A stretch of DNA of 60,164 nt from Caldisericales bacterium (GTDB lineage Bacteria > Caldisericota > Caldisericia > JAAYUI01), in NCBI GenBank assembly GCA_022707885.1, contig JAKIZT010000011.1, positions 3,127 to 63,290 of the forward strand. Reading direction: 5' to 3'. The first letter of the stretch is position 1. Each line of letters opens with the position of its first letter. The notes beneath the pieces were generated by a model. That model saw only the letters and a program-made list of their open reading frames with translations, ran no database searches and was not told the origin of the DNA. The translations under genes were made by a program, and so were the position numbers. Below, one piece after another: positions 31,613 to 47,344 of this stretch.

Positions 31613-34600
31613 CTACTTTACCCTTATCTTTTTGGTATAAGTGCAGGAATTGGCATAACGGTCAGTGGTCCTGAGGGTTATGCTGTAGCTGCCCGAGGAA
31701 TAGGTGTAGCTGAATTCTTTTGTGGTGTCATTTTCAATGTTGAAGGTTTTGTCAATCTTTCCATCACCTTCGAAATCAAGATCAACAGTGTATGGTCCAC
31801 ATCCACCAAACGGGCTCACCTTGATGGTCATTGTGCCAGATGCAGGGATGACATAAATGTTGTCATTGTCCGGCTTTGCCTCTGGAATCAAGATCGAAAT
31901 GTCGGGGCACTCACAAACTACTGGCTCTTTTGCGCCAACTCTGAGTACTATGACCGCGGTATCCTGGTCCCTTAAACCCTCTGCGGAGGTGACAATAGCA
32001 GTATTTATGATATTGATGCCGGGGTTAAGGCTTATGTCTTTTCTGACTCTCAATGTCAGCTCAATAATTTTTACTTCTCCAGGATTCATGACTCCAAACG
32101 ACCAGACGATTTTTTGCATGCCGAGTGATCCTGAAGGAATCGAGGATACGTATTCAAGTTCTCTTGGCAGGATATCAACCACAACAACATTGGTTGCTTC
32201 TCTTGTACCAATATTTTTTACAATTATCGTGTAGCTAACTTTTTCACCCTGCTGGGCCATGAATTTCTTTGTTGTTTTCGTGAGTGTAATGAGTGGCTCG
32301 CCAAGAACATCGACAGTGCACTGTGCAAATTCCGGGTTTGGTGCAGTATCGGCATATGTCAGAACGTTGTTGGTGAGTTTGGTGCCTTTGGCCAAGTGGC
32401 CAACTCTTACCCTTACGACAAGAACGAATGTTTCGCGTGGTGCAAGGCTTCCATTTCCAGCCAAACCAACAGAAGTTGTCCATCTGTTGTTGTCAACATC
32501 TGGCGGCGGGTTGGCATCGTAGAAGGTCACTCCCTTTGGATAGTTCTCGACGATATTGACGTTTGTCTGTGTGTATGGGGTATCGTTTGTAACAGTTATT
32601 GTGTAAATCAGAAGGCTGTCTGGAAGCACAGGGTCTGGAACGCATTTTTTTGTTATCTGGAGCGATGGCACAACCGGAACCTGGAGAATGAAGCCATGCA
32701 TGTGGCCTCTTTCCTCAGAACGTGGGTAGTATGGGTTTGGCCATGGTCCGCCAGTTGGTGAACCAGCGCAGGTATAATAATTATTTTCTGTATTGGGATT
32801 GCAATCAATATCATCATTACCCCATTCAGTTGCCACACAGGGTCCCTGGCCATCATCCAGTGAGTTGGGATCAGAACCACCGGCGTTAGAACAAACCAGA
32901 TAAGGCCTGAGCAGGACCGATGAATCTTCACCAGCGAGATATGTTCTTGTCGGTCTGTGAAGTGCTTTTGTATCATAATCCTGGTTCACATAGTCCCACC
33001 ATTGGTCAGCTTTCCAGTGGATGGCTGTCTTTGCGGCAACGACCGTGAAATCACGGTGCCAGAACCATGAACAACTGTACTGTTTTGCATTAGAAGCATA
33101 TTTTGGATTCATTGCTTTAGGGCTCCACTGATAGCCGGCTGGGAAGCCCGGTGGCAACGTTGGGGCAGTTTCTGCTCCGCTATTTGCTCCCATCCATCCG
33201 TTTGCCCACCATGCACCACCCTGGCCTGCCATTGGGTCAGCTGGTTGTGGATTGAGCCAGAACTGGTCGGTTGGAACCCTGTTGGTGCCACATGCCCAAT
33301 AATCCCATTCTGTTCTGTACCATCCAAGTTGCCCTCCGCAGGTTCCATTATCAGCCGAGTTTCCAATTATTCCGACATAAGCTCCGGCATTTGCGCCATC
33401 AACAGGCCATGTTGAAGGATCCGGTGGGGTCCTGAAACCGGAGAACATGGTTTGCGAGTTTTGCCTGTCATTGTTGCAAAGTGTCAATGCACCATCCGCA
33501 ATCATTATTTGGGAGAGCGGGAGAGTGGAATTCTCAAAAATCATTACTATCTCAAATCCATAATACTGCGGGTTCCCAGGCTCAAAATCCTGATACACTC
33601 TGGACACTGTAATGAAATCGTATGGGTCAGTGATATATGGTGTAATATTGAAACGGAATGTTGATTGCATCTGGCCCCAGCCTCTGCAACCACAATTTGG
33701 CCTGTAACCGCTGTCGTTGTTTCTTCCAAGGAATGAGCCAGCGCAAAGAATTGATTGTGGATTTCCAGGCCTTCCAGAATTAACAAGGATCGGCTCGTGT
33801 TGATAGTTTCCTCCACCTATATTCCTTCCAACCGAGTTGGCATACAGGTAGCAGGCAACAAGTCTTGAATTGTCCGGTATGTAGTCCGGGCGATATTTCA
33901 GGCGTGTTATTCCAGTGGCTCCGGGGGACGAATCATGGACAAACTGGCAGAAATAAGTCCTGTTTGCCCCGCCACCACCAAAAGCGGTTGACTGGGCAAG
34001 CATTGCAAATCCATATTTTCCAATAAATGGCGGAATGTCCTGATTGAGTCTGTTGAACGATGTTGTGAACTGGTGAACGTAGTAGAACCTTCCAGTATTC
34101 ACATAATCATATTCCGGATACGGTGCACCATCACCAAAATATTGGTAGCCAAGAACCACACCATCAGTGAAAACGCCTTGTGTTGCTGTTGGCATGTTGT
34201 TAAATGACGCATCTCCACCAAAACCAGCAAGCCCGGTAAACGGGGAGTTGTCGTAAGAGAAGGCTATACTGTCTCCGCCGTTTGTTCCTCCACCAATCAT
34301 GACTCCGCTGTGGATAGTTGGACCAACCTGCTCGCGGCTTGCAAAATAAGCTGTGATATTTGCTGTTACAGGTGGGATATTGACAGAAGAGGCATCAAAG
34401 TTTATTTGATAACCACCCGTTGGGAGGGGCTGGATTGGACCCGCTCCATCAGGATCAAACCCGAAATAAAGGGCGGCTGGATATATCGCTCCGCTACTAA
34501 AAGCAGCAAGCCTTCCATCGGCACCAAATGCAAGTGTCGGGTTTGGTGCAGCATTGCAGGCTGTCCAGCCTGTTGGTGCACCACTGTAAGCATCATGGAA

Positions 34601-36187
34601 ACCAACCCTCGTTGTGATATCCTGACCAATTGTTACACCACCCTGGCCATGCATTGAAAATGCTGTTATAGTTGCTGTTCCAGCAAGTGGTGCTTCAAAA
34701 CCACCGGATAGTGTTTGATAGAAGACTGGGCCAAAATCAAGTCCAAAATTGAAGCTTGCTCCAGTATAATTAAAGAGGTGTGATCCGATATCACAAATCC
34801 CTGTTCTGTCGTCACCAGCCATGTAAGGAATCCCACCATCAGGCGTGACTGGACCATTTGGAACATACAGTTTGCCACCGGTTGAGGTGCCAATGCCCAA
34901 TATGTTCTGGGCACCATACCATGTTGTTATGTAGTCCTTATTTTCAACATTGCTATTGGCTTTGTCAGCGTAGAGAACATCCGAAATAATCTGGTTCAAT
35001 ACAGGAACTTCACCTCTGATTCCTGGGTATCCTGGCGGATATATAAGATAACGATCATAATATTCCGAGTTGAAATCTACAAAGAAGGTGCCAGAACCAT
35101 ATGTGGCCGTCTGGCCATCATTGATGATTCCAGGTGTTGTTTCTCTCCATATTTTATACCAGACTGAAGCAGCCATCTGGTACCTTGTTGGGGCAAGAAC
35201 CAGCATACGCTCGCCAGGAGTGCTTGTGTAGAAGAAGCCTCCGCCTGGTTGCAAAGCTGTCTGGTTGCAGTTTTCATAAAGAGGAAGCGTTATGGGTGTT
35301 CCCCAGCTGAGGTTTGGCCTGTTTGGAGGAGTGTATCCATTGCGCTGGCACCACAATCTTCTTGCAAGGATTGACTGCATCTCTGTCATTCCTTCAACCC
35401 ATGCGTGGAAATAAAGGTTGAGGTCATCATAATAGGCATGGACCATTTCATGTGCCAGTGCATCGAGTCTTGCTTCTTGTGCCGTCATGTTCCAGGCAGG
35501 CACGAAATAAGCCGCATCACGTGCCATGTCAGTTGGCATATCTATATAACCTATAGAGCCGACACCAGACTGTGTATACTGGGCAAAAGTGCCAGTTGGG
35601 AGGTTGTCATCTCTTCTAAAATAAACCTCAATAGAAAACATTGGGGCGCCAAAAACATCCTGGATGCAATTTTTCATTCCAATCGGGAAGCTCGGACCAC
35701 CTTCTACAAAGGTCTGGATATTTGGCATTTCAGTTGCGCAATTCCAGTATGAATCAGGAGGTGTAGCACCAGACTGGCATGAACCTGTAAATCTCCAATC
35801 TATAATGCCCGAAGGTGCTATTTTTTGGGTTGGCAGTATTGGATTGTCATTGCGATATGTGTTTTGTGGGAGAGGATTAGTCATTATCTTTCCGTTGTGT
35901 TTGTAGAGCACCAGTGGATCAAAGTTGAAACCAGCAGGAACTCCCTTTGCAATCTCTTTAAGAGCCCTGTCCGCAATATTCCTGATTTTCTTCTGGTTCT
36001 CCCTTGAATATATCTGGACAAACGGAGTTTTTTCTCCGATGATCGGGGTCACATCAACCACGATCGCTCCAGGATTCGACTCATTTACCTTGCCTTTAGC
36101 AGTAGTTCTTGTTTCGAAGGCAAATACAGAACCGAAACCAATCTGCACAATGAACAGCACAGCTAGCGCCAATGAAAGTTTTTTCAT
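31613..36187 (-). CDS. Giant secreted putative metallopeptidase with DUF11 domains
   Basis: The protein has 1524 residues from the ATG at 36187 (aggggag 5 nt upstream); 38 open codons before it look untranslated. A signal peptide (about 1-23) is followed by GAIVVDVTP at 40-48. A zinc-peptidase site is seen at H246-E247-M-V-H250, with E265 in HAWVEGMTE as likely third ligand, a gluzincin-like arrangement. A very long Gly/Asn/aromatic-rich beta region follows. Two DUF11-type domains (starting near 1180 with LQITKKCVPDP and near 1300 with LITLTKTTKK) and a PKD-like C-terminal domain (about 1425-1524) form a stalk. There is no C-terminal membrane anchor. It is probably an exported surface enzyme; the substrate is unknown. 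Confidence 0.8.
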   Translation of the reverse strand: MKKLSLALAVLFIVQIGFGSVFAFETRTTAKGKVNESNPGAIVVDVTPIIGEKTPFVQIYSRENQKKIRNIADRALKEIAKGVPAGFNFDPLVLYKHNGKIMTNPLPQNTYRNDNPILPTQKIAPSGIIDWRFTGSCQSGATPPDSYWNCATEMPNIQTFVEGGPSFPIGMKNCIQDVFGAPMFSIEVYFRRDDNLPTGTFAQYTQSGVGSIGYIDMPTDMARDAAYFVPAWNMTAQEARLDALAHEMVHAYYDDLNLYFHAWVEGMTEMQSILARRLWCQRNGYTPPNRPNLSWGTPITLPLYENCNQTALQPGGGFFYTSTPGERMLVLAPTRYQMAASVWYKIWRETTPGIINDGQTATYGSGTFFVDFNSEYYDRYLIYPPGYPGIRGEVPVLNQIISDVLYADKANSNVENKDYITTWYGAQNILGIGTSTGGKLYVPNGPVTPDGGIPYMAGDDRTGICDIGSHLFNYTGASFNFGLDFGPVFYQTLSGGFEAPLAGTATITAFSMHGQGGVTIGQDITTRVGFHDAYSGAPTGWTACNAAPNPTLAFGADGRLAAFSSGAIYPAALYFGFDPDGAGPIQPLPTGGYQINFDASSVNIPPVTANITAYFASREQVGPTIHSGVMIGGGTNGGDSIAFSYDNSPFTGLAGFGGDASFNNMPTATQGVFTDGVVLGYQYFGDGAPYPEYDYVNTGRFYYVHQFTTSFNRLNQDIPPFIGKYGFAMLAQSTAFGGGGANRTYFCQFVHDSSPGATGITRLKYRPDYIPDNSRLVACYLYANSVGRNIGGGNYQHEPILVNSGRPGNPQSILCAGSFLGRNNDSGYRPNCGCRGWGQMQSTFRFNITPYITDPYDFITVSRVYQDFEPGNPQYYGFEIVMIFENSTLPLSQIMIADGALTLCNNDRQNSQTMFSGFRTPPDPSTWPVDGANAGAYVGIIGNSADNGTCGGQLGWYRTEWDYWACGTNRVPTDQFWLNPQPADPMAGQGGAWWANGWMGANSGAETAPTLPPGFPAGYQWSPKAMNPKYASNAKQYSCSWFWHRDFTVVAAKTAIHWKADQWWDYVNQDYDTKALHRPTRTYLAGEDSSVLLRPYLVCSNAGGSDPNSLDDGQGPCVATEWGNDDIDCNPNTENNYYTCAGSPTGGPWPNPYYPRSEERGHMHGFILQVPVVPSLQITKKCVPDPVLPDSLLIYTITVTNDTPYTQTNVNIVENYPKGVTFYDANPPPDVDNNRWTTSVGLAGNGSLAPRETFVLVVRVRVGHLAKGTKLTNNVLTYADTAPNPEFAQCTVDVLGEPLITLTKTTKKFMAQQGEKVSYTIIVKNIGTREATNVVVVDILPRELEYVSSIPSGSLGMQKIVWSFGVMNPGEVKIIELTLRVRKDISLNPGINIINTAIVTSAEGLRDQDTAVIVLRVGAKEPVVCECPDISILIPEAKPDNDNIYVIPASGTMTIKVSPFGGCGPYTVDLDFEGDGKIDKTFNIENDTTKEFSYTYSSGSYSITLRTTDRYANSCTYTKKIRVK

Positions 36188-36793
36188 GCTAACTCCCCTT
36201 TTTTTACGAAAAACAACCGAATGGTCTAGAATAGAAACAGTCTGAAAACGACAAACACAAATGATACCTGTACAACACAACCTGGGATTCTTAACAAACA
36301 ATTACAATTTATTGATATTGAAACGAATTGTCAAGTGGCCCCTCTTGGGATAATTTCCAATGCAAATCTTTCTTTGGTCAAAATTTTCTAACAAATACAA
36401 AAACCATCACAAAATGGTCTATTTGAGATAAAATAGCGCACTTTTTTATATCAATGTTACATATATGTATATTATATGTATTAAGCTTGCGATATGCATA
36501 AAATTGGGCAAAGAATCATTATGAAAGCTTAGAAATTCTTGTTATTCAAATTCATACTTATCAATAATATTTAAACTTATGACTAAAATTAATAATTTAT
36601 ATATCAAAAAATAATTTAATACTTAATCGGTGAGCAATGCTCATATTTGATATTGATAATTTTTACTGAATTTAAAATAAATCGTTCAAACAGGTTTGGT
36701 ATAAACAAACCTATGGAAAAGAAAAAATGCCATAGGTTTGCCAAAAACACGTTTCTTTTAATTTTAAAAGCGGACAAAAACTTCAAAGATAAC
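36188..36793. other. AT-rich intergenic region with inverted repeats
   Basis: No coding frame here looks real. The clearest structure is a three-part repeat: AGGTTTG (36692-36698), CAAACCTATGG (36706-36716) and CCATAGGTTTG (36730-36740). The middle part can pair either with the left part (7 bp) or with the right part (11 bp, 13-nt loop). It lies about 55 bp upstream of the ferredoxin promoter, so it could be an operator, or the end of an unannotated small transcript. Confidence 0.5.
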
Positions 36794-37100: not shown

Positions 37101-37811
37101 TTAAAGAAGTTCTATTCCCCTGCTCATTTTTGAGACCGACGAGAAACACGAGTCTACACCTGTGATGTCTCGCACCCCAACATTTATCACTTCCATTATT
37201 TTTGTGGCCATGTCAAAAAGTTCATTTGAATAATAATCAATCTCCACCTGTGTAAAAACTTCATTAGGTCTTGCCTTGTATGTCACCCTGTCAATTTTTA
37301 TTTTGACCTGGTCAGTGGGCTGATCACTGTAAGAAATCGGGTATATGCACCTTTCGCACTTCAGTCTGATAATCTCTGAAAGCCCCATTGACTCAAGGTG
37401 TTCCACCACACCTATGGCTTCTGGACTCGGCGGACAAAGCTTTTCAGGGTGGTCTCTAAGGAGTTCGGCAATTATTTCGTTTGTTTTCAAAACCGATATT
37501 TCATTGTCGTATATCTCGGCCGGCTTTCCATAGCTTGCCTCATTGAGTTTCCTGTAGGCTATGAACTCTGCTTCCCTGGATTTTTGCGGCCACACTGATT
37601 TTCTAACTCTTATATATGCATCCTGGCCATGCAAGAGGAACAATCCTGAGGGCTGAAGCTGGTCAAAATACCTGTCATAATTGATCATATCAATTCTTGC
37701 CCTGACTGGCCATCTGTATTTTTCGATAAGTTCAGAGACAAGCGCAGAAATCTTCGGCGAGGCATCAGCATTAATATCAAGCTTAAGCTCTCTTTCATTG
37801 GTTGGATTCAT
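37101..37811 (-). CDS. CYTH-fold protein (second of a pair)
   Basis: A 236-residue protein with the CYTH/triphosphate-tunnel signature ExExK at its N-terminus (ERELKLDI), followed by basic strands (AYIRVRK, EAEFIAYRK), KIKIDRV and an acidic pair in TQVEIDYY. The family includes thiamine triphosphatases, tripolyphosphatases and class IV adenylate cyclases, so the substrate should be a triphosphorylated compound in the cytoplasm, but which one cannot be told. Its ATG overlaps the stop of the upstream CYTH gene (ATGA). Confidence 0.65.
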   Translation of the reverse strand: MNPTNERELKLDINADASPKISALVSELIEKYRWPVRARIDMINYDRYFDQLQPSGLFLLHGQDAYIRVRKSVWPQKSREAEFIAYRKLNEASYGKPAEIYDNEISVLKTNEIIAELLRDHPEKLCPPSPEAIGVVEHLESMGLSEIIRLKCERCIYPISYSDQPTDQVKIKIDRVTYKARPNEVFTQVEIDYYSNELFDMATKIMEVINVGVRDITGVDSCFSSVSKMSRGIELL

Positions 37812-38458
37812 TGTTCTCCTCCATTATTAAGGCCCAAAAGAAATTTACTTTTTTGCGATGGCCCCAGGGTTGGATTTTTGTTTTTCACAAACTTTTTCTC
37901 GATGGCCTGTCTAAGAGGATCAAGAAAAACCGGGCCTTCCACTTCTATTTCAGAAAATACATTGCTGGTTTTTGGAAAAACATAAGTATACGTATCAAAA
38001 GCTATCTGGCCACAGCCCTTGCTGCAACAGACTTCTCGGGTTTTCCTTCCTTTGGTCAGGACAACAACGGGCAAAAGTTTCTCTGGCTCGGAGAGCAATT
38101 TTAGCGTAGTCTCATCTGCTGGATCCTGAAAGATTGATTTTAGTTTCTTGGTCACTTTACCCATAAGGTCTTTGTAGGTGTTGGATTCCTCCTCAATCCT
38201 TATATGATTTTTTTCATCAAAAGTCTCAAGGGTTTTCAGAGTTATTTTCCTTAAAATACCGCCCTCATAGCGGTTTCTCAATGAATATCCAGAGTTCTTC
38301 AAAACAAAATTGCAGTCAAGGTAAACGTCAAGCTGATCAACAAGCCTGATGTCACCCAGGCCAAATCCAAGCTCAATGGAAATCTTTCCAATGGCCTCTT
38401 CGACGGCTTTTTTATTTTTTAAAACCATATACTTTGATTCGTTTTCGAATTGGACCAT
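37808..38458 (-). CDS. CYTH-fold protein (first of a pair)
   Basis: About 216 residues with a CYTH-like ExExK motif (FENESKYMV), basic strands SLRNRYEGGILRKITLK, and the acidic strand FSEIEVEG. The middle carries an odd Cys-rich segment (REVCCSKGCG). It is translationally coupled to a second, diverged CYTH gene. I start it at the ATG at 38458: there is no ribosome binding site but a promoter -10 box sits 10 nt upstream, so a leaderless start is likely. An alternative TTG at 38491 would lie inside that promoter. Confidence 0.65.
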   Translation of the reverse strand: MVQFENESKYMVLKNKKAVEEAIGKISIELGFGLGDIRLVDQLDVYLDCNFVLKNSGYSLRNRYEGGILRKITLKTLETFDEKNHIRIEEESNTYKDLMGKVTKKLKSIFQDPADETTLKLLSEPEKLLPVVVLTKGRKTREVCCSKGCGQIAFDTYTYVFPKTSNVFSEIEVEGPVFLDPLRQAIEKKFVKNKNPTLGPSQKSKFLLGLNNGGEQ

Positions 38459-38468
38459 TTTTAATGGT

Positions 38469-38496
38469 AATATAATGCCGCTTTCAGCCAAGTCAA
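38469..38496 (-). promoter_or_regulatory. Promoter of the CYTH pair, likely leaderless
   Basis: On the minus strand TTGACT (38491-38496), 16 bp, TATATT (38469-38474), then 10 nt to the ATG at 38458. Confidence 0.6.
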
Positions 38497-38543: not shown

Positions 38544-39560
38544 GTGAATCCAGATTTTGATTACATATCCAAGGGGCTGGTGGGCGTAGAAGAAAACCTG
38601 TCAAAGGCCGCTTTATATCCAATAGGGCAAGCATTAGAGCTTGCTATTTCTCTTATTCCACTGGGACTGCCATCAGATTCACGCTTCTGGCTTGAAAAGC
38701 TCGCCCAGATGTCAAGAAACAGCCAAAGCTCCGGCAAAAGGTTCAGAGCAAAACTGGCCCTTGCATCTTCTCAGGCCATAGGTCTTCCCATAGACATGGC
38801 AATCAACCTTGGCGCTTTCGTAGAAATGATACAGTCCGCAAGCCTTATACATGACGATGTTGTTGACGAGGCATCATTAAGAAGAAATGAGCCAACTGTA
38901 AACAGCCTCATGGGCAACCGTTTTGCGGTGCTTACCGGTGATTATGTTCTTTCTTTAGCTTTAACAAAATTGGGGGAACTAAAAAATCACAACCTGACAA
39001 TGCGCTTTTCCGAGGTCGTATCACAAATGACGTTCGGTGAGGCAATGGAAATAGAGATAACATTCAACCATGCAAGAACAATCGCACATTATCTCACCAC
39101 AATATCGCTCAAAACCGCTTCACTTCTGTCATTCTGCTGTCAAAGCGCCTGCCTGATTGCAAATGTTAACGAGAAAACAATAAATAGTCTTGCAGAATTT
39201 GGTGCAAATCTCGGAATGGCCTTTCAATTGATAGACGACACGCTTGATTTTATAGGCCCTGATGGAAAAGAAAAATGCCAGGATTTTAAAGAGGGCCTTT
39301 TAACCCTGCCCATTTTATTGTTGTGTATACAGGGAAACCCGTTTGATAAAAGCATTGATGAAATCCAGGTTCTGATAGCAGAGAAAAACACTCTTGCGCA
39401 AACAATTGACAAGGCCAGGGAATATTCTGTAAAAGCAATAGACTGTCTGGATGGAATAAAAAATCTGATCTCAGAGCGCTGCTTGCAAACATTTATTGAT
39501 ATAAATACAAGTATTTATGAAAGACTTCCCAATAATCTCAACCCATTTCCAAGGAGATAA
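38544..39560 (+). CDS. Polyprenyl diphosphate synthase
   Basis: A 338-residue trans-isoprenyl synthase. The first Asp-rich motif is DDVVDEASLRR (from D104) and the second is QLIDDTLDFIG; SGKRFRAKLAL is the allylic-substrate region. It elongates farnesyl or geranyl diphosphate, probably to a quinone or carrier side chain. Start is GTG at 38544 with no ribosome binding site but a -10 box 8 nt upstream. It is 2 nt from pduL, so it is the first gene of an operon whose other members have no obvious link to isoprenoids. Confidence 0.9.
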   Translation: MNPDFDYISKGLVGVEENLSKAALYPIGQALELAISLIPLGLPSDSRFWLEKLAQMSRNSQSSGKRFRAKLALASSQAIGLPIDMAINLGAFVEMIQSASLIHDDVVDEASLRRNEPTVNSLMGNRFAVLTGDYVLSLALTKLGELKNHNLTMRFSEVVSQMTFGEAMEIEITFNHARTIAHYLTTISLKTASLLSFCCQSACLIANVNEKTINSLAEFGANLGMAFQLIDDTLDFIGPDGKEKCQDFKEGLLTLPILLLCIQGNPFDKSIDEIQVLIAEKNTLAQTIDKAREYSVKAIDCLDGIKNLISERCLQTFIDINTSIYERLPNNLNPFPRR

Positions 39561-39562
39561 AT

Positions 39563-40171
39563 ATGAACGTAGACGAAATGATCCAGAAAACATGGAACGA
39601 TGGCAACGGGCTCGACATCAATGTTGGCGTAAGCTCAAGACATATTCATCTGCATGAGGACCATGTCAAAATACTCTTTGGTCATGATCTGACATGTTAC
39701 AAGGACCTGACCCAGCCAGGACAATACGCATGCAACGAAAAAGTTGACCTGGTTGGTCCCAAGGGAACCATCAAGGGAGTCAGGGTGTTGGGTCCGACTA
39801 GAAGGGCCACGCAGGTTGAGGTTTCAAAAACTGATTCTATAATACTTGGTCTGGATGTACCACTCAGAATGTCGGATGATATGGAAGGTACTCCCGGAAT
39901 AAAACTGGTCGGAGAAAAAGGTGAAATCGTCCTGGACAAAGGAGTCATTGTGGCAAAAAGACATATCCACATGTCACCCGAGGACGCTGAAAAAGCTGGC
40001 GTCACCAATGGTGAAATGGTCTGGGTTTCTGCCAATACACCAAGAAAACTGGTAATGGGCGACATTGTGATAAGGGTTTCAAAAACCTTTGCACTCGATT
40101 TCCATATTGACACAGATGAGGCAAATGCAGCCTGGCTCAAAAGTGGAGACAAAATCAGGATAGTGAGGTAA
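39563..40171 (+). CDS. pduL: PduL-type phosphate acyltransferase
   Basis: A 202-residue PduL, which converts acyl-CoA and phosphate to acyl phosphate and CoA. The two zinc-binding segments are VSSRHIHLHEDH and VAKRHIHMSPEDAE; other family motifs are PTRRATQVEVS and PLRMSDDMEGTPG. Residues 1-18 form a short extension with a possible helix; it is not a clear encapsulation peptide. PduL is the phosphotransacylase typical of bacterial microcompartments, although stand-alone forms exist. Here the BMC shell gene two positions downstream supports a microcompartment connection. Confidence 0.93.
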   Translation: MNVDEMIQKTWNDGNGLDINVGVSSRHIHLHEDHVKILFGHDLTCYKDLTQPGQYACNEKVDLVGPKGTIKGVRVLGPTRRATQVEVSKTDSIILGLDVPLRMSDDMEGTPGIKLVGEKGEIVLDKGVIVAKRHIHMSPEDAEKAGVTNGEMVWVSANTPRKLVMGDIVIRVSKTFALDFHIDTDEANAAWLKSGDKIRIVR

Positions 40172-40174
40172 CTC

Positions 40175-41377
40175 ATGACAAAAGAGAAAATAGAAAACAT
40201 ACAGCAAAACACCGACACATTTTCTATACAATATGAAAAGAACCAGATCGACAATAAGGGCGTACGCCTTTCAACGATGTTGCTTGCAGCAAGATACGTT
40301 GCCATGGGATTACTCATATTTTTGACCTATATCACAGGCTTCGCAAGATACATAGGCGACTGGGCAATTGCACTTGGCGGAAGTGCCGACAATTTCGTAA
40401 TATGGTTTGGCTTCGGTTTCGCTTACTCCATTTGCCTTTCGGTACTTGTTTTCCCAATCGACTGGTACAGGGAAGCAGTTATACAGGTAAAATCTGGCGT
40501 CCATGGAATGCCATGGGTAAACACCCTGGGAAGAATCCTCCGCAGAGATTTCTTCGATGCCCTGCTTTGGGGCGGATTGAATTACTACTTCCTCGTTATG
40601 TACTTCTCACTCTCCACAACCGGAAGACAGGGTCCTTTGGGTGGCAACACCCCACAATGGTGGATAATTTCAGCACTCTGGGGCATGCTTTTTGTTACAG
40701 CCTGGTTCATAATAATCAATCTTCTAAAGCTGATTACTGACAACTCAATAAAGCAGGTTCCAACAGGCCCCGATAGAAGGATAATAAAAGAGCTTGGAAG
40801 AAAATTTAGAGTGACTGTCCTTGATATTTTCTACTACAATCTCGGTGGCGATTTTAATGCTGAAACCAAGCTGGTCGGACTCTTTGGCGTATACTTCGTT
40901 TTCGTTCCGGCAAAGCTCAAGGGCAAAGATGTTATAATTGCGTCTGTTGCAAAAGCAATGGCAAGGGCAGACGTATTGAAAGGTACAGTCATCAACATCG
41001 TAAGATGGGTCTTCTTCATGGCTGGCTCTTATTTAATATATCTCGCTTTCAACTGGGTCTATGTAAATAACGTTTTCTCCTGGTTCTCCGAACAGGCAGG
41101 AACTGGCGATCCGGCAGTTGGAATCATAGTAATGTTTATTCTTGGTGTCCTTTATCTCATTGCCACTCCGCTCATCAATCTCATATCAAAACGTATGGAT
41201 ATCGGGGCCGACAAGCTCGCCTCAAGGGCGATTGGCAGACCAGAAGTTTACTCGAACTACCTCAAGATGGTGGACACTGGAAAAGCAATATCCAGTGAAA
41301 CAGACAACATGACAAAAATGTGTCTGATGGACACATACAATTCTGAAGAAATCGAGAGGCGCTTGGCCAATAAATGA
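40175..41377 (+). CDS. HtpX/M48-like membrane protein with degenerate active site
   Basis: A 400-residue membrane protein with about five hydrophobic segments. Its layout follows M48 (HtpX/Ste24) proteases: a loop DFNAETKLVGLF where relatives have NAFATG, then IIASVAKAMARADVL where HtpX has AxLAHELSHxxNRDVL, two membrane helices, and DIGADKLASRAIGRPE where HtpX has EYxADxxxAxxTGxP. The zinc motif HExxH is replaced by SVAKA (257-261), and the third-ligand Glu by Asp (342). So the fold is probably kept but catalysis lost. It is 3 nt after pduL and overlaps the BMC-T gene by 4 nt. The relation to M48 is my reading of the pattern, not a search result. Confidence 0.65.
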   Translation: MTKEKIENIQQNTDTFSIQYEKNQIDNKGVRLSTMLLAARYVAMGLLIFLTYITGFARYIGDWAIALGGSADNFVIWFGFGFAYSICLSVLVFPIDWYREAVIQVKSGVHGMPWVNTLGRILRRDFFDALLWGGLNYYFLVMYFSLSTTGRQGPLGGNTPQWWIISALWGMLFVTAWFIIINLLKLITDNSIKQVPTGPDRRIIKELGRKFRVTVLDIFYYNLGGDFNAETKLVGLFGVYFVFVPAKLKGKDVIIASVAKAMARADVLKGTVINIVRWVFFMAGSYLIYLAFNWVYVNNVFSWFSEQAGTGDPAVGIIVMFILGVLYLIATPLINLISKRMDIGADKLASRAIGRPEVYSNYLKMVDTGKAISSETDNMTKMCLMDTYNSEEIERRLANK

Positions 41378-41901
41378 ACATAGGCATCATAAGGATCTCA
41401 ACGAAGGCTGATAGATACCGCCTAAAACAGACAATTGAATCAACTGGTGTTCAGGTGGTACAGACAATTGATAGCGCAAGCATGCCCCCAACAATTGTTT
41501 TTGTTGGTACAGAGGACCAGATGCTCATGGCTTTCAAGCAAGCTGAAAGCCTCGGGGCCGAATATGCAAAAGTGTTGACACACATAAGGGAAGTGTCGCC
41601 CAAGTTGATAAAAGCCCTAAAAGAAGGCCCAAAATTCAAACCGGGGCAACCATTCGGAATCCTTGAAACTGCCGGTCCAGAAGCAATTCTGGCCTGTGCA
41701 AATCTCGCGGCAATGTTTGATGGTATCGAACTGGCAGAAATCCAGCTGGCAAGCATGCCAAACGAGAAGTCACTCGTGGTCATAACAGGTGACAAGAAAT
41801 TGATTGAAAGTGTTCTTGAAAGCGCAGAGATGATCTGCGAAAAAACACATTTTACAGTCCCAGGAAGCAAACCCGGGCAAAGCGACGGAAGGCAAAACTG
41901 A
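41374..41901 (+). CDS. Tandem-BMC-domain shell protein (BMC-T type)
   Basis: A 175-residue protein with two BMC-like halves. The second (about 93-160) is the clearer: FGILETAGPEAILACANLAA, a GIELAEIQLASM strand and LVVITGDKKLIESVLESA match the BMC signature GIxETxG...xxGDxxxVxxA. The first (about 1-80) follows the same plan (NIGIIRIS, TIVFVGTEDQMLMAFKQAE), and THIREVSPKLIKAL matches the linker of PduT-like proteins. BMC-T proteins form trimers with hexagonal outline in microcompartment shells. No BMC-H or pentamer gene is in the window. It overlaps the pseudo-protease gene by 4 nt. Confidence 0.75.
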   Translation: MNIGIIRISTKADRYRLKQTIESTGVQVVQTIDSASMPPTIVFVGTEDQMLMAFKQAESLGAEYAKVLTHIREVSPKLIKALKEGPKFKPGQPFGILETAGPEAILACANLAAMFDGIELAEIQLASMPNEKSLVVITGDKKLIESVLESAEMICEKTHFTVPGSKPGQSDGRQN

Positions 41902-41924: not shown

Positions 41925-42386
41925 ATGGATTTCATCAAATCCAAGAAACCTGAGCACTGCGTTTTCTGCAAAGCAGGTGCAAACATAGGTGGTGAGGACA
42001 AAGATTTCATTGTCCATCGTGGAGAAAAATGTTTTGTAATACTCAACCGCTACCCCTACGCAACAGGGCACATCATGATCATCCCATATAAACATTGTCA
42101 AAAATTTGAAGACTTGGGTGATGAAGAGCTTTCAGAAATGATGATTTTGGCAAAAAAATTTGTTCCAGTTCTAAAGCTCGCATTCGCCCCTGACGGATTC
42201 AATATGGGAATGAATCTCGGTGCTGCCGCAGGTGCGGGTATCGCTGACCATATCCATTTACATATCGTGCCAAGGTGGATAGGGGACACAAATTTTATGC
42301 CCGTCCTTGCCGAAGTTAAGATCCATCCAACCGATTTGGAAGGTGTTTACAAAGCAATCTTGCAGGCCCTTAAAGCTACCGCCTAA
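41925..42386 (+). CDS. HIT-family nucleotide hydrolase/transferase
   Basis: A 153-residue protein with the histidine triad HIHLHIVPRW and the family's GHIMIIPYKH and NMGMNLGAAAGAGIADH segments, nearest to the Ap4A phosphorylase/Fhit-like branch. The N-terminus has CVFC and later VHRGEKCF, possibly a zinc site. It probably acts on dinucleoside polyphosphates or AMP conjugates. It is the last gene of the polyprenyl synthase-pduL-BMC operon, 23 nt after the shell gene, and its 3' end overlaps that of the convergent membrane protein gene by 11 nt. Confidence 0.9.
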   Translation: MDFIKSKKPEHCVFCKAGANIGGEDKDFIVHRGEKCFVILNRYPYATGHIMIIPYKHCQKFEDLGDEELSEMMILAKKFVPVLKLAFAPDGFNMGMNLGAAAGAGIADHIHLHIVPRWIGDTNFMPVLAEVKIHPTDLEGVYKAILQALKATA

Positions 42387-42657: not shown

Positions 42658-43698
42658 TCAATCTCCTTTCTGGCATGGAGCACACGAGACAATATCGCCA
42701 TCCTTGAGGCCAAGTTTCTTTGCATCTATCTGAGCAATTATGGCCCTTTCATCAAGGTTTCTCATCTTGGTGACGCTAAATACAGGCTTGTAATAAATAT
42801 TCCTGAATTCTACCGAGTCAATTTTTTGTCCCCTAAGTCTTGCAATCCACATATCATACAGATATTCATCAACAAAAACCTGACCATGCCTCGGATTGCC
42901 GATGCTTATAATCAACTCTTTTTGATGCGCAATTCTTTGAATGTCCAGGATGTCATACAACTTTGACATATCAACAGCTTTTGAGTATTCGTCAATGACT
43001 GAAATTGCATTTTTGAGACAAAGAACACACATCATATCAGCGAAATCGTCAATAGATAACGACATGGACTCAAAGAGATCGGCAAGCCTGGTGCCAATTG
43101 TTATTTTTGAAAATATTTCAGATTCATTGGCGTTAAGTTTTGTTTTGGTGATCTTGGGAATCAGGAAAATGTCCTTTTTGATTTCTGCTTTTTTAATGGC
43201 TATCATGCCTTCGTCGAGCATTTCATTTACGAGTTTTTTAGTTTCTTCCTCGGAAAATGAGAGCGACGAAACAAGGTTTGAATAAGTGATGCCACTTCCA
43301 ATAAATCCTGCAATCAGCCATTTATCGGGATCAATGGCTATCTGTCCACCTTCCTTGAGTGGATTTCTTACAAGCACTGTACTTTGACAAAGCCTGTTCT
43401 GAAGATCTATATAGACTGATGCGGCTTTCAAAAGGCTCTCGGTGAGAGTTTTTATATTGGTTTCAACAGCATAATCTTGCTCAAAAGTGAATTTAAGCGA
43501 ATTGAGCTTTATCATCTCATAGAATGCCTGTTCAGCTATTTTTTCCTGCCATTTTGCAAAAGTTATTTCCCCAGATCTGACCTGAACGGAGCCTGATCCG
43601 GAAGTATTTGACACTGTTATCGTTCCGGTCTGGTTTTGTGAGAGGAGAAATTTGAACAAATCCAGTAAACCAGTGCCATTTATTTCACCAGATAGCAT
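42658..43698 (-). CDS. DUF4388-domain protein (paralogue A)
   Basis: A 346-residue protein. Residues 1-100 are a DUF4388 (PatA-like N-terminal) domain: GEINGTGLLDLFKFLLSQNQTGTITV, VRSGEITFA, and F-rich strand LKFTFEQD. A helical middle is followed by a C-terminal domain (QVFVDEYLYDMWIARLRGQKIDSVEF) shared with the neighbouring paralogue. DUF4388 proteins usually act in regulatory or gliding-type signalling systems. The ATG has no ribosome binding site; a promoter ends 6 nt upstream. Confidence 0.8.
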   Translation of the reverse strand: MLSGEINGTGLLDLFKFLLSQNQTGTITVSNTSGSGSVQVRSGEITFAKWQEKIAEQAFYEMIKLNSLKFTFEQDYAVETNIKTLTESLLKAASVYIDLQNRLCQSTVLVRNPLKEGGQIAIDPDKWLIAGFIGSGITYSNLVSSLSFSEEETKKLVNEMLDEGMIAIKKAEIKKDIFLIPKITKTKLNANESEIFSKITIGTRLADLFESMSLSIDDFADMMCVLCLKNAISVIDEYSKAVDMSKLYDILDIQRIAHQKELIISIGNPRHGQVFVDEYLYDMWIARLRGQKIDSVEFRNIYYKPVFSVTKMRNLDERAIIAQIDAKKLGLKDGDIVSCAPCQKGD

Positions 43699-43704
43699 GC
43701 CAAT

Positions 43705-43732
43705 AAGGTATCATAATGGAAATTATTGTCAA
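43705..43732 (-). promoter_or_regulatory. Promoter of DUF4388 paralogue A, possibly leaderless
   Basis: TTGACA (43727-43732), 16 bp, and a weak -10 TACCTT (43705-43710) on the minus strand, 6 nt before the ATG at 43698. Confidence 0.45.
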
Positions 43733-43755
43733 TTTCTTAATATTTTTATAATTTT

Positions 43756-44787
43756 TTAATATTTTGGATAAATATCCACGAACGACCCTTCCTGGATACC
43801 GAGCAGTTTTTGATCGTTTGGTCTGATGAAAAAAGAATCCCTTGGCATTTTTCCTTTTTCCACAAGAAAACTGACTTTGCCATTTGGGCAAACTATTTCA
43901 ACAGAATCAATTTTTTTGCCAAAAAGCTGGCTTTCCCACATCCCAATTACAAACTCATCAATAGCCAGCGTGTTGGGTCTGACACAAAGTGAATTGTCTA
44001 TTCTAAGCTTTAGCGAAATTGGCCTGGCAACTTTCTCAAACCCGAGTGATTTATAAATATACCACGATGGCATTATCTTTCCGTTGTTATCAGACATGAC
44101 AACCATTTTTTTGAGAACAAGCGAAACAAGTATGTCTGCAATAGATACAGTCTGGTTTTCATATTGCACCAAAAATTCACCCAGTGGCATTCCATGTGTT
44201 ATTGAATTAAAAATCTGTCTTTCTCTCTCGGACAGATCTATCGGGCTCTCTTTCGGGAACAAAAAAAGAGTGTCCACCATAAATTTTGGCCTTATGAAGA
44301 TCAAACCCTCCTCAACCATTAAAGAAAGCGTTTCCTGAAGGCACGGTAAAGTGAGCTTCGTTGAAGCAGTCAACTGGGCAACACTAAGTGGGGTAAACAA
44401 AGAATTCAAAATGTTTTCTTTTTGAATAGACAATGGAACGTCTGGCAAAACTTTTTCAGTTTTTTGCACAATTGTTTTTGGAAGGAAACGCTCATCAGGT
44501 GGAAGTTTGTTTATTTTTGACAAATACTTGAATGGCAGGGGTTTTTCGCAGTGCTGTCTGTTTAGTCTGGTAAAGTTGAACCTCAGCGACCCAATTTTTG
44601 ATAACGCCATAATTGCATCTTTGCCAGTTAGATCGCCAAATTTAGCCATGGCAATAATGTTTCCATCCACAACAATATCACCATTGCCCGAATCTGTTTC
44701 AAAAATAATGGTCCCCGAATGGCCCTGGTTCAAAAAAAATGCAAGAAGATCATACAGTTCTCCTCCGACAATCTCGCCTGATTGCAT
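43756..44787 (-). CDS. DUF4388-domain protein (paralogue B)
   Basis: A 343-residue protein built like its downstream neighbour. The DUF4388 domain reads GEIVGGELYDLLAFFLNQGHSGTIIF and GNIIAMAKFGDLTGKDAIMAL. The middle could hold winged-helix-like segments (PLSVAQLTASTKLTLPCLQETLS). The C-terminal domain aligns with paralogue A (LAIDEFVIGMWESQLFGKKIDSVEI; LGIQEGSFVDIYP). The shared C-terminal domain, about 90 residues, is unknown to me. The ATG lacks a ribosome binding site and has a -10 box 6 nt upstream. Confidence 0.8.
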   Translation of the reverse strand: MQSGEIVGGELYDLLAFFLNQGHSGTIIFETDSGNGDIVVDGNIIAMAKFGDLTGKDAIMALSKIGSLRFNFTRLNRQHCEKPLPFKYLSKINKLPPDERFLPKTIVQKTEKVLPDVPLSIQKENILNSLFTPLSVAQLTASTKLTLPCLQETLSLMVEEGLIFIRPKFMVDTLFLFPKESPIDLSERERQIFNSITHGMPLGEFLVQYENQTVSIADILVSLVLKKMVVMSDNNGKIMPSWYIYKSLGFEKVARPISLKLRIDNSLCVRPNTLAIDEFVIGMWESQLFGKKIDSVEIVCPNGKVSFLVEKGKMPRDSFFIRPNDQKLLGIQEGSFVDIYPKY

Positions 44788-44978: not shown

Positions 44979-46082
44979 ATGAAAGCTGTTCAGAAAACTG
45001 AACCGAAAATAGGAGCTAAACTTGTTGAGGTGCCAACCCCAACCAATCTCAAACCAGGATGGACCCTCGTCAAAGTAAGGGCGACATCCATTTGTGGAAC
45101 AGATATCCATATCTGGAACTGGGACCAATGGTCACAGGGGAGGATGGGTGAGAAAGCATTGCCACAGATACTTGGCCATGAGTTCTGCGGAGAGGTGGTA
45201 GAGCTGGGGCCAAATTGCAACAGGATAAAAGTCGGCGATTACGTATCAGCAGAAACACACATTTATGATCCAGGAGACCTCACCTCAATGCTCGGGATTT
45301 TTCATGTTGGCAACAACATGAAGATTTTGGGTGTTGATACTGATGGTTGCTTTGCAGATTATGTTGCAATTCCAGAAATAGTTCTCTGGAAAAACGACAA
45401 AACCATGCCACCAGAGTACGCATCTATCCAAGAACCTCTTGGCAATGCCTGTTACGCTGTAATGGGCGAGGACAATGACGTTTACGGCAAAACAATGCTC
45501 ATAACCGGGGACGGCCCAATATCGCTATTTGCAATCGGCGTCGCAAAAGCCGCCGGCGCGTCAAAAATCATCCAGTTTGGGATGGCACAATACAGTATGG
45601 AAATTGGGCGCAAGATGGGTGTCGATATACAAATAGACGTCACAAAAACCACCCCGGACGAAAGATATAAAATGGTTATGGACAATACTGGAGGATGGGG
45701 ATGCGATATTGTTTGCGAGATGATAGGTGCCCAAAGCTCCCTTGATGACGCTTTCCGCTGCATCAGAAAAGGCGGAAGATTCTCGGCATTTGGCATACCT
45801 TCAAAATCGCCATCACAGATAGATTACACCGACCAGATCGTTTTCAAGGGCATCCAGATACATGGCATCTCCGGAAGAAAGATTTTTGATACCTGGTACC
45901 GCAATGGAAACATGCTGGCAAACCGCAAACTTGACCCAACGCCGGTAGTAACACACCTGATGGCCCTGGAAGACTACCAGAAAGCATTCGAAATGCTGAC
46001 AGCACCAACGAGACAGTGTGCAAAGATTGTCATGTTCCCCGACAAGCAGGAATTGAATGCGGCCATGGCCCGCAGAAAATAA
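44979..46082 (+). CDS. tdh: L-threonine 3-dehydrogenase
   Basis: A 367-residue medium-chain dehydrogenase that oxidises threonine to 2-amino-3-ketobutyrate with NAD. The catalytic zinc site has C39 ([14 protein letters not shown]) and H67-E68 (GHEFCGEV). The Tdh-typical [12 protein letters not shown] is near the C-terminus. The nucleotide loop reads [11 protein letters not shown]. The structural-zinc loop of ordinary Tdh, with four Cys, is missing: residues 95-115 read [21 protein letters not shown] with no Cys. The pairing with kbl 11 nt downstream confirms the pathway. Confidence 0.92.
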
Positions 46083-46093
46083 GGAGGAAACAA

Positions 46094-47344
46094 GTGGCAT
46101 ACGGAAAGATTAAAGATTTTTTGACAAACGAGCTCAAAGGGATAAGAGATGCCGGACTATACAAAGAAGAGCGCATCATAGTAACCCCCCAGGCCGCAGA
46201 CATCAAGGTCCAGTTTCCTGAAAACGCACCAGTCAAAGAAGCGCTCAATTTCTGCGCAAACAACTACCTCGGGCTTTCCTCGCATCCCGATGTCCTGAAA
46301 GCGGCAAAAGAAGGCCTCGAAATGAGGGGCTACGGCCTTTCATCCGTTCGCTTCATCTGCGGAACACAGGATATCCACAAGAAACTGGAGAGGAAACTTT
46401 CAGAATTCCTTGGGGTTGAAGATTCGATACTTTATTCATCATGTTTTGATGCAAATGGTGGCCTTTTTGAAGCCCTGATGAAAGAAGAGGACGCCATTAT
46501 TACAGAAGAACTCAACCATGCTTCAATAATTGATGGTGTCAGGCTCTCAAAGGCAAAAAGGTACGTCTTCAAACACTCCGACATGAATGACCTCGAGGCA
46601 AAATGCAAAGAGGCCAGGGGCGCTGGTGCAAGGCACATGATAATTGCCACAGACGGCGTTTTCTCCATGGATGGCGATATTGCCAACCTGAAGGGCATCT
46701 GCGATGTTGCAGATAAGTATGATTCTCTCGTCATGGTTGATGATTCACACGCAACGGGTTTCATTGGGAAAACTGGCAGGGGGACCCATGAACACAATGG
46801 TGTTATGGGGAGAATTGACGTAATAACAACCACGCTGGGTAAAGCCCTTGGCGGCGCATCTGGTGGAGCAACATGTGGAAGGAAAGAGATTATCGACATA
46901 CTTCGCCAGAGATCCAGGCCATATCTGTTCTCCAACACTATTCCACCAGTTGTTGCCAATGCGGCCCTCAGGGTCATGGACATACTCTCGTCGACAACCG
47001 AGCGCAGGGACAAACTCGAAAGAAATACCATGTATTTCAGGGAAAAAATGACATCTGCGGGATTTGACATAAAACCAGGCGTTCACCCAATCGTTCCGAT
47101 AATGCTCTACAACGCAAAGCTCAGCCAGGACATGGCAAAAGACCTCTACGAGAAGGGTATATATGTCATAGGGTTCTACTACCCCGTCGTGGCCAAGGGA
47201 CAGGCAAGAATAAGGGTCCAGATTTCAGCAGGACACGAAATGAAACATCTCGACAAGGCGATAAAAGCCTTCACCGAGGTTGGGGAAAAATATGGCATTC
47301 TTCACAAAAACAAAGACCAGATAATCGAAAAATACGGATTGTAA
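46094..47344 (+). CDS. kbl: Glycine C-acetyltransferase (2-amino-3-ketobutyrate CoA ligase)
   Basis: A 416-residue PLP enzyme of the alpha-oxoamine synthase family that splits 2-amino-3-ketobutyrate with CoA into glycine and acetyl-CoA. Motifs are [30 protein letters not shown] and the PLP lysine in [14 protein letters not shown] start it at a GTG with aaggagg 7 nt upstream, immediately after the tdh stop; the open frame further upstream overlaps tdh. With tdh it forms the threonine-to-glycine route and feeds acetyl-CoA. Confidence 0.96.

What the first reader, a model, noticed from the sequence alone, without database searches (positions are those of the whole stretch)
39563..41901. PduL, an inactivated HtpX-like membrane protein and a lone tandem-BMC protein in one operon
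Seen: three genes overlapping or within 3 nt encode the microcompartment phosphotransacylase PduL, an M48/HtpX-like membrane protein, and a two-domain BMC shell protein. No other shell or signature enzyme genes are nearby. A shell protein coupled to a membrane protein suggests a membrane-associated or minimal BMC-like structure, or a reused BMC-T protein, rather than a normal microcompartment locus.
Basis: partly seen in the sequence, partly recalled or inferred. Interest (0 to 1): 0.72.

Follow-up and report, generated by a model that had tools for sequence, protein, structure and literature searches.

The report
Shell-less microcompartment protein with membrane pseudoprotease
A family of uncultured Caldisericia bacteria keeps, in one conserved gene cluster, the enzyme PduL, a membrane protein predicted to be shaped like a Ste24-type protease but lacking its cutting motif, and a relative of microcompartment shell proteins, although no other shell gene was detected in any of its five genomes, so the shell protein has likely been reused, perhaps to hold the enzyme at the membrane.

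Summary
PduL, a 400-aa membrane protein and a 175-aa tandem BMC protein (39563-41901) are 3 nt apart and 4 nt overlapped. The order polyprenyl synthase, PduL, membrane protein, BMC protein, HIT is kept in 5 of 5 genomes of this Caldisericia family; dN/dS is 0.035-0.094. The window protein alone scores below Pfam's BMC cut-off, but 12 of 12 aligned homologs match BMC (best 7e-8) and their profile finds PduT structures. No other BMC or pentamer gene was detected in the five genomes, though strongly diverged ones could be missed; 6 of 15 genomes of another family have both. The membrane protein resembles Ste24/ZMPSTE24 by a low-confidence model and lacks HExxH in 8 of 8 rows. PduL here carries an amphipathic N-terminal extension like microcompartment targeting peptides; five aligned PduLs of two shell-free families lack it. 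Best reading: a shell-free scaffold, likely membrane-tethered, for PduL. Tethering, docking and pathway role are inferred. A new variant of a known protein kind, not a microcompartment.

The parts
38544..39560 (+). polyprenyl diphosphate synthase, first gene of the run; ends 2 nt before pduL
   Evidence: Pfam PF00348 194 bits; next to pduL in 5 of 5 family genomes
39563..40171 (+). PduL phosphotransacylase (PTAC)
   Evidence: PF06130 248 bits; NCBIfam PRK15070 257 bits over its cut-off 209; aligned to the solved PduL 5cuo, E 2.8e-49; metal ligands and Arg kept in 10 of 10
39563..39610 (+). codons for the first 16 residues of PduL: an amphipathic N-terminal extension, like an encapsulation peptide (role inferred)
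   Evidence: 21-22 residues before the conserved G-[VI]-S-x-R-H in 5 of 5 family genomes against 7-12 in 5 of 5 aligned PduLs of two other families; hydrophobic moment of a 12-residue core 0.49-0.55, reached by 1.3-4.5% of shuffles; alignment starts at positions 3-5 of the BMC-EutD model, in the others at 16-20
40175..41377 (+). 400-aa membrane protein, Ste24/HtpX (M48)-like, without HExxH; pseudoprotease by inference
41374..41901 (+). 175-aa tandem BMC-domain (BMC-T, PduT-like) protein
   Evidence: AF2 two beta-alpha-beta-beta-alpha-beta repeats, pLDDT 61.7; halves superpose on PduT and PduA
41925..42386 (+). HIT-family nucleotide hydrolase/transferase, last gene of the run
   Evidence: PF01230 67 bits; adjacent in 5 of 5 family genomes
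44979..46082 (+). threonine 3-dehydrogenase-like protein, syntenic neighbour
   Evidence: TIGR00692 356.6 bits, below its 458 cut-off; next gene after HIT in G004, same strand
46094..47344 (+). glycine C-acetyltransferase (2-amino-3-ketobutyrate CoA ligase, KBL), syntenic neighbour; start taken inside the ORF 46016-47344
   Evidence: TIGR01822 651 bits over its cut-off 493; syntenic in 5 of 5

Best explanation
A conserved gene run in one Caldisericia family encodes PduL, a membrane protein predicted to have the Ste24 protease fold but lacking the HExxH motif, and a tandem BMC-domain protein in genomes with no other detected shell gene, and this BMC protein likely works as a shell-free trimer that docks PduL beside that membrane protein. 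Shown: the gene order, the BMC-domain homology, the missing HExxH motif, the absence of other detected shell genes, the purifying selection and the PduL N-terminal extension. Inferred: the BMC protein forms a PduT-like trimer; it binds the PduL N-terminal helix, as shells bind encapsulation peptides; the pseudoprotease serves as the membrane anchor, with its substrate chamber kept for binding rather than cutting; the complex turns acetyl-CoA (plausibly from the neighbouring threonine-dehydrogenase/KBL pair) into acetyl phosphate for acetate kinase, recycling CoA locally.
For: Five-gene order kept in 5 of 5 family genomes of two genera although the BMC and membrane proteins have fallen to about 30% identity. 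dN/dS against three congeners: BMC gene 0.042-0.064, membrane-protein gene 0.048-0.088, PduL 0.035-0.061. BMC identity. No further BMC or BMC-P match in G000-G004; the controls in both searches rang. PduL extension: 21-22 residues before the first conserved motif in 5 of 5 of this family, 7-12 in 5 of 5 aligned PduLs of families f5/f6, in which no BMC gene was found; it lines up with the extensions of two BMC-locus PduLs, Kosakonia and Cetobacterium, and is missing in an Acetoanaerobium PduL. PMC4784909 (passages seen) reports such extensions only in BMC-associated PduLs. No Pta above 400 bits in this family (best 129.6), so PduL is the only strong phosphotransacetylase candidate, with an acetate kinase above 500 bits in 5 of 5. 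Ste24-like fold; the relative P0008 matches the Ste24 N-terminal Pfam weakly (E 0.011, below cut-off).
Against: No interaction, trimer or membrane localisation was tested. PMC11157265 (passages seen) reports that PduL's peptide binds tessellating PduA and not non-tessellating variants; a BMC protein whose tiling residues are partly lost should then bind it poorly. The edge position of domain 1 is still Lys or Arg in 7 of 12 homologs. PF00936 does not even detect the lone BMC protein in G000-G003, so equally diverged hexamer genes could be missed. Overall score to the BMC-EutD model is no higher in this family (227-235 bits) than in f5/f6 (223-237), all below its cut-off 315. Polyprenyl synthase and HIT share the run without an obvious link to PduL. 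In the window two opposite-strand genes separate HIT from the threonine-dehydrogenase/KBL pair. Both structure models are weak (pLDDT 61.7 and 48.7) and superpose poorly as wholes (TM 0.33-0.39 and 0.32-0.37, rmsd about 15 A). The helix statistic rests on 12 residues that I chose and one lineage.
Confidence: 0.4

Rival explanations
1. The BMC protein is a leftover or satellite of a microcompartment whose other shell genes were lost or are missing from the assemblies; it has little function of its own.
For: Another family of the same class has BMC-domain and pentamer genes in 6 of 15 genomes, with a PduT-like BMC-T in the four loci that I looked at; satellite and satellite-like loci are known (PMC8217296, PMC4207490, passages seen). 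The five assemblies are 69-95% complete, and PF00936 misses the diverged BMC protein itself in four of them.
Against: No other shell gene detected in 5 of 5 family genomes; dN/dS 0.042-0.064; same place in the same gene run in two genera; 28 invariant columns in 12 homologs. The other family carries Pta instead of PduL (PduL in 0 of 15), with a Pta gene about 5 kb from the BMC-T in G009, G034 and G038.
Confidence: 0.2
2. BMC protein and Ste24-like protein form a gated membrane portal: the BMC trimer caps the cytosolic mouth of the Ste24-like chamber and lets a small metabolite pass, and PduL works on what comes through.
For: Predicted Ste24-like fold, whose chamber is known from solved relatives (recalled); a conserved new pore loop, Pro-Pro in 12 of 12 where the PduT of family f2 has Cys-Pro-Gly-Lys; the two genes overlap by 4 nt in the window.
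Against: No channel family match in the Pfam and NCBIfam scans; Ste24 is not known to me as a transporter; in G004 this protein is 118 residues longer, mostly one insertion, which a precise portal might not tolerate.
Confidence: 0.15
3. PduL is simply the housekeeping phosphotransacetylase, and the pseudoprotease plus BMC protein form an unrelated membrane regulator or quality-control adaptor that happens to share the gene run.
For: PduL is the only strong Pta candidate here and also occurs without BMC genes in families f5 and f6; neighbours such as polyprenyl synthase and HIT look unrelated.
Against: Among the aligned Caldisericia PduLs the N-terminal extension appears only in the family that has the lone BMC protein, and PduL, membrane and BMC genes stay contiguous in 5 of 5 genomes.
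Confidence: 0.25

Closest known systems
PduT-type BMC-T shell proteins (TIGR02526; PDB 3pac, 3n79; PduT of Caldisericia family f2)
   Same: Two tandem, non-permuted BMC domains of about 175-185 aa; profile matches E 3e-7 (3pac) and 7.6e-7 (3n79); hhalign E 7e-7 to the f2 PduTs.
   Different: No BMC-H or BMC-P detected in the genome; pore Cys-Pro-Gly-Lys of domain 1 replaced by Pro-Pro; domain 2 edge Asp/Lys replaced by Asn and Met/Leu/Glu in 12 of 12.
Ste24/ZMPSTE24 (M48A) and HtpX membrane proteases
   Different: No HExxH; a single histidine in the window protein. PF01435 finds only a different gene in each of the 5 family genomes.
PduL of metabolosomes (PDB 5cuo)
   Same: Full PTAC domain, metal ligands, N-terminal amphipathic extension.
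   Different: Not in a BMC locus; neighbours are a membrane pseudoprotease and one BMC-T only.
[quoted passage not shown]
   Same: Shell gene with few or no other shell genes beside it; satellite-like loci are predicted there to be structurally incomplete BMC loci.
   Different: Satellite loci are defined there as distal from a main locus; no main locus was detected here. I did not check whether any listed satellite-like locus is a lone BMC-T.

Membership tests
BMC-domain protein (PF00936) | match over Pfam's curated cut-off by the window protein itself | tested here: not met
   13.8 bits against 24.5; PF00936 search of G000: 0 matches at E <= 0.001
BMC-domain protein (PF00936) | family-level homology to BMC proteins | tested here: met
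   12 of 12 homologs match at E <= 1, best 7e-8; G004 homolog 24.6 bits and 25.9 bits; profile vs PDB 2.8e-8
BMC-T (tandem, non-permuted) | two BMC folds in tandem in the order beta-alpha-beta-beta-alpha-beta | tested here: met
BMC-T | trimer formation | not testable with these tools
   single-chain prediction only
Tiling shell protein | edge lysine (PduA K26 position) | tested here: not met
   domain 2: Met, Leu or Glu in 12 of 12; domain 1: Lys 5, Arg 2, Ser/Met/Glu 5 of 12
PduT | pore cysteine for the 4Fe-4S cluster | tested here: not met
   f2 PduTs have CPGK; here PP in 12 of 12
Bacterial microcompartment locus | BMC-H and BMC-P genes in the genome | tested here: not met
   PF00936 finds only the lone BMC-T of G004, nothing in G000-G003; PF03319 0 of 5 family genomes; assemblies 69-95% complete and diverged genes can be missed
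PduL / PTAC | PF06130 over cut-off and metal-binding residues | tested here: met
   248 bits; H27, H29, R80, E86, H134, H136, H181 invariant in 10 of 10, corresponding to the ligands named in PMC4784909 (passages seen; correspondence by alignment and motif)
M48 peptidase | HExxH zinc motif | tested here: not met
   absent in 8 of 8 distinct rows; one His in the window protein
M48 peptidase | Ste24/HtpX-type fold | tested here: inconclusive
Encapsulation peptide | short amphipathic N-terminal helix on a BMC-associated enzyme | tested here: inconclusive
   moment, length and alignment fit; binding not tested

The most novel reading that the evidence does not exclude
The BMC fold, described as unique to microcompartments (PMC8217296, passage seen), has been freed from shells and rebuilt as a membrane docking plate: a PduT-derived trimer fixed to a dead Ste24 protease captures PduL by its targeting helix, giving a shell-less, membrane-bound CoA-recycling station.
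Probability: 0.3. Interest if true: 0.8.

Novelty: new variant of a known kind. Interest (0 to 1): 0.66.

Why it matters
BMC shell proteins are treated as markers of microcompartments. A conserved, selected BMC-T that lives without a shell would show that the fold can serve outside one, bears on how shells arise and decay, and offers a natural minimal pair (PduL helix plus one trimer) for testing how cargo binds shell proteins. It also gives a candidate membrane pseudoprotease with a metabolic partner. Searches of the held papers for microcompartment with Caldiseric- (3 papers), microcompartment with HtpX (1 paper), BMC-domain/PduL/BMC-T terms (4 papers) and orphan/solitary/single BMC phrases (3 papers) listed no title or abstract that describes such a system; subscription papers are mostly not held.

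Tried and rejected
BMC identity from the single window sequence: Pfam 13.8 bits and a BRCT_2 match of equal weight would not have been enough; homolog profiles were needed. The first protein search with the single sequence found 5 proteins, the alignment search 12.

Membrane protein as a DctQ transporter part: Pfam E 0.044, below cut-off; not supported by the fold search.

Idea that PduL came from the ethanolamine BMC of family f2: not supported; PF06130 found in 0 of 15 f2 genomes, 14 of 15 of which carry a Pta above 400 bits.

Idea that PduL in families f5/f6 sits behind a homolog of the M48-like protein: rejected; in the three loci scanned the upstream proteins are permease-like at best (one MOT1 match E 0.0014, two without any match) and the M48-like alignment finds nothing outside this family among 49 class genomes.

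PduL tree with 13 sequences: unresolved between BMC-type and shell-free relatives (support 0.46-0.51; the split from f5/f6 0.89). Not used.

Claim that the edge lysine is lost in both domains: withdrawn after counting; domain 1 keeps Lys or Arg in 7 of 12.

A1 profile against PDB sequences: nothing at E <= 10. Plasmid search with the BMC protein: no match. Promoter/terminator scan: 18 against 14.3 and 8 against 6.3 expected, uninformative. Positions printed for P0006-P0008 come from gapped rows and are not used; HExxH was recounted on ungapped rows. A count in my notebook (7 of 20 f2 genomes with BMC) is wrong; one search gives 6 of 15.

Rows dropped: A4 leaves out G001 (near-identical to G003), P0001 (99% to window) and P0003-P0005 (fragments or frame-broken); G003's BMC protein was read to its own stop (173 aa). 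A1 keeps near-identical rows, so 8 of 8 is not 8 independent cases.
Full report
WHAT IS THERE. A polyprenyl diphosphate synthase ends 2 nt before pduL and a HIT gene starts 23 nt after the BMC gene, all in one direction. That these form one operon is inferred from spacing and order. The genome is an assembly of 1.94 Mb in 88 contigs, 90% complete; the four named relatives that carry the BMC gene are labelled Caldisericia (3) or Caldisericales (1).

CONSERVATION. The BMC gene was found in 5 of 5 genomes of the family (handles G000-G004, two genera). The order polyprenyl synthase, PduL, membrane protein, BMC protein, HIT is the same in all five. Between the two genera the BMC and membrane proteins are about 30% identical and PduL 66%. 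dN/dS of the window genes against three congeners (two for HIT) is 0.042-0.064 (BMC), 0.048-0.088 (membrane), 0.035-0.061 (PduL; 0.090 against G004, where dS is saturated), 0.079-0.094 (polyprenyl synthase), 0.044-0.081 (HIT); these look like working genes, not decaying ones. Threonine-dehydrogenase-like and KBL genes follow in 5 of 5; in G004 next after HIT (136 nt) on the same strand, in the other four behind two inserted opposite-strand genes.

THE 175-AA PROTEIN. Alone it is a poor match to BMC (13.8 bits, cut-off 24.5) and a weak one to PduT (E 5.8e-4). With 12 homologs (A4) the case is firm: 12 of 12 match PF00936 at E <= 1 with a best of 7e-8, the G004 homolog is over the cut-off (24.6 bits, 25.9), the profile finds a Desulfitobacterium BMC-T at 2.8e-8 and PduT at 3e-7, and hhalign matches the PduTs of Caldisericia family f2 at 7e-7. 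The AlphaFold2 model (pLDDT 61.7) has two beta-alpha-beta-beta-alpha-beta units. Foldseek's best 26 matches are tandem BMC proteins or cages designed from them (E 3e-8 to 2e-5), but whole-chain superposition is poor (TM 0.33-0.39, rmsd about 15 A), presumably because the two halves are not placed well against each other. Taken apart, residues 1-71 fit PduT at 1.8 A and residues 91-165 fit PduA at 2.2 A. Designed ferredoxin folds score nearly as high, so the sequence evidence carries the claim.

WHAT IT LOST. Compared with four f2 PduTs, the pore loop of domain 1 changes from Cys-Pro-Gly-Lys to Pro-Pro in 12 of 12, which removes the cysteine that holds the cluster in PduT (recalled). In domain 2 the edge motif Asp-x-x-x-Lys becomes Asn-x-x-x-Met/Leu/Glu in 12 of 12. 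In domain 1 the same position is Lys in 5, Arg in 2 and another residue in 5 of 12. PMC4139245 (passages seen) calls this lysine conserved in all shell proteins and reports that changing it to Asp leaves no higher-order structures in cells. So tiling is probably weakened; it is not proven absent.

NO SHELL DETECTED. PF00936 searched in 49 genomes of the class: beyond the lone BMC-T of G004, hits only in 6 of 15 genomes of family f2. PF03319 pentamers: the same 6 genomes, 0 of 5 in this family. Escherichia coli and Synechococcus rang among the controls. A limit: PF00936 does not find the lone BMC protein itself in G000-G003, so other shell genes that far diverged would be missed; searches with the family's own profile gave one place per family genome. 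Four f2 loci were looked at; they hold EutB/EutC-like, PduT, RnfC-like and other metabolosome genes (names by recall from the sequences).

PDUL. The enzyme looks active: residues that correspond to the zinc ligands and the phosphate arginine named in PMC4784909 are invariant in 10 of 10 aligned Caldisericia PduLs. PduL occurs in 10 of 49 class genomes: this family 5 of 5, f5 4 of 5, f6 1 of 1, f2 0 of 15, f3 0 of 5, f4 0 of 18. Pta hits above 400 bits occur in 14 of 15 f2 genomes only; the best in this family is 129.6 bits. An acetate kinase above 500 bits is in 5 of 5 family genomes. So PduL is the likely phosphotransacetylase of this family, and PduL as such needs no shell. Yet here it has 21-22 residues before the first conserved motif, against 7-12 in the five aligned f5/f6 PduLs. 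The extension is amphipathic (moment 0.49-0.55; 1.3-4.5% of shuffles reach it) and lines up with the extensions of BMC-locus PduLs from Kosakonia and Cetobacterium. PMC4784909 (passages seen) reports such extensions only in BMC-associated PduLs. Against this, the whole protein is no closer to the BMC-EutD model than f5/f6 PduLs are. The extension ties PduL to the BMC protein more than gene order does, though it is one lineage and a short stretch.

HOW IT MAY WORK. My best reading is a shell-free scaffold: a BMC trimer, held at the membrane by the dead Ste24-like protein, captures PduL by its N-terminal helix, so that acetyl-CoA, plausibly from the threonine-dehydrogenase/KBL pair, is turned into acetyl phosphate and CoA is recycled. 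Only the parts are shown; trimer, docking, anchoring and substrate are inferred. The main difficulty is PMC11157265 (passages seen): PduL binds tiled PduA hexamers and not non-tiling variants. If that holds here, docking must use another surface, or the complex must form short edge contacts through domain 1.

NOVELTY. Satellite and satellite-like shell loci are known (PMC4207490, PMC8217296, passages seen); satellite loci are defined beside a main locus, which was not detected here. PMC8217296 states that the two shell folds are unique to BMCs. Searches of the held papers listed no shell-free BMC-T with a membrane pseudoprotease in titles or abstracts; subscription papers are mostly not covered.

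Noticed in passing
window 37101-38491 (-): Two adjacent uncharacterised proteins divergent from the operon, no Pfam or NCBIfam family match, syntenic in 5 of 5 family genomes, not detectably related to each other; the first begins with an ERELKL stretch, CYTH-like by recall.
   Followed up: partly
window 42658-44787 (-): Two tandem opposite-strand genes (42658-43698 matches DUF4388) lie between HIT and the threonine-dehydrogenase gene in the four genomes of the window's genus but not in G004.
   Followed up: no
L072, L073, L074, L011 (genomes G009, G005, G034, G028): 6 of 15 genomes of Caldisericia family f2 carry BMC-domain and pentamer shell genes; the four loci looked at are ethanolamine-type by recall. 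The 2021 BMC catalogue's main text does not hold the word Caldiseric-.
   Followed up: partly
L069:6334-8405, L067:5525-7721, L071:389-2470: In three f5/f6 loci PduL lies directly behind a divergent multi-membrane-segment protein, permease-like at best; in L069 the PduL start overlaps the end of that ORF.
   Followed up: no
window 31613-36301 (-): 1562-aa protein with DUF11-type repeats near its C-terminus, likely a surface protein.
   Followed up: no
class Caldisericia, 49 genomes: Phosphotransacetylase type splits by family: Pta above 400 bits in f2 (14 of 15), PduL in f1/f5/f6 (10 of 11), neither strong type in f3/f4 (0 of 23).
   Followed up: partly
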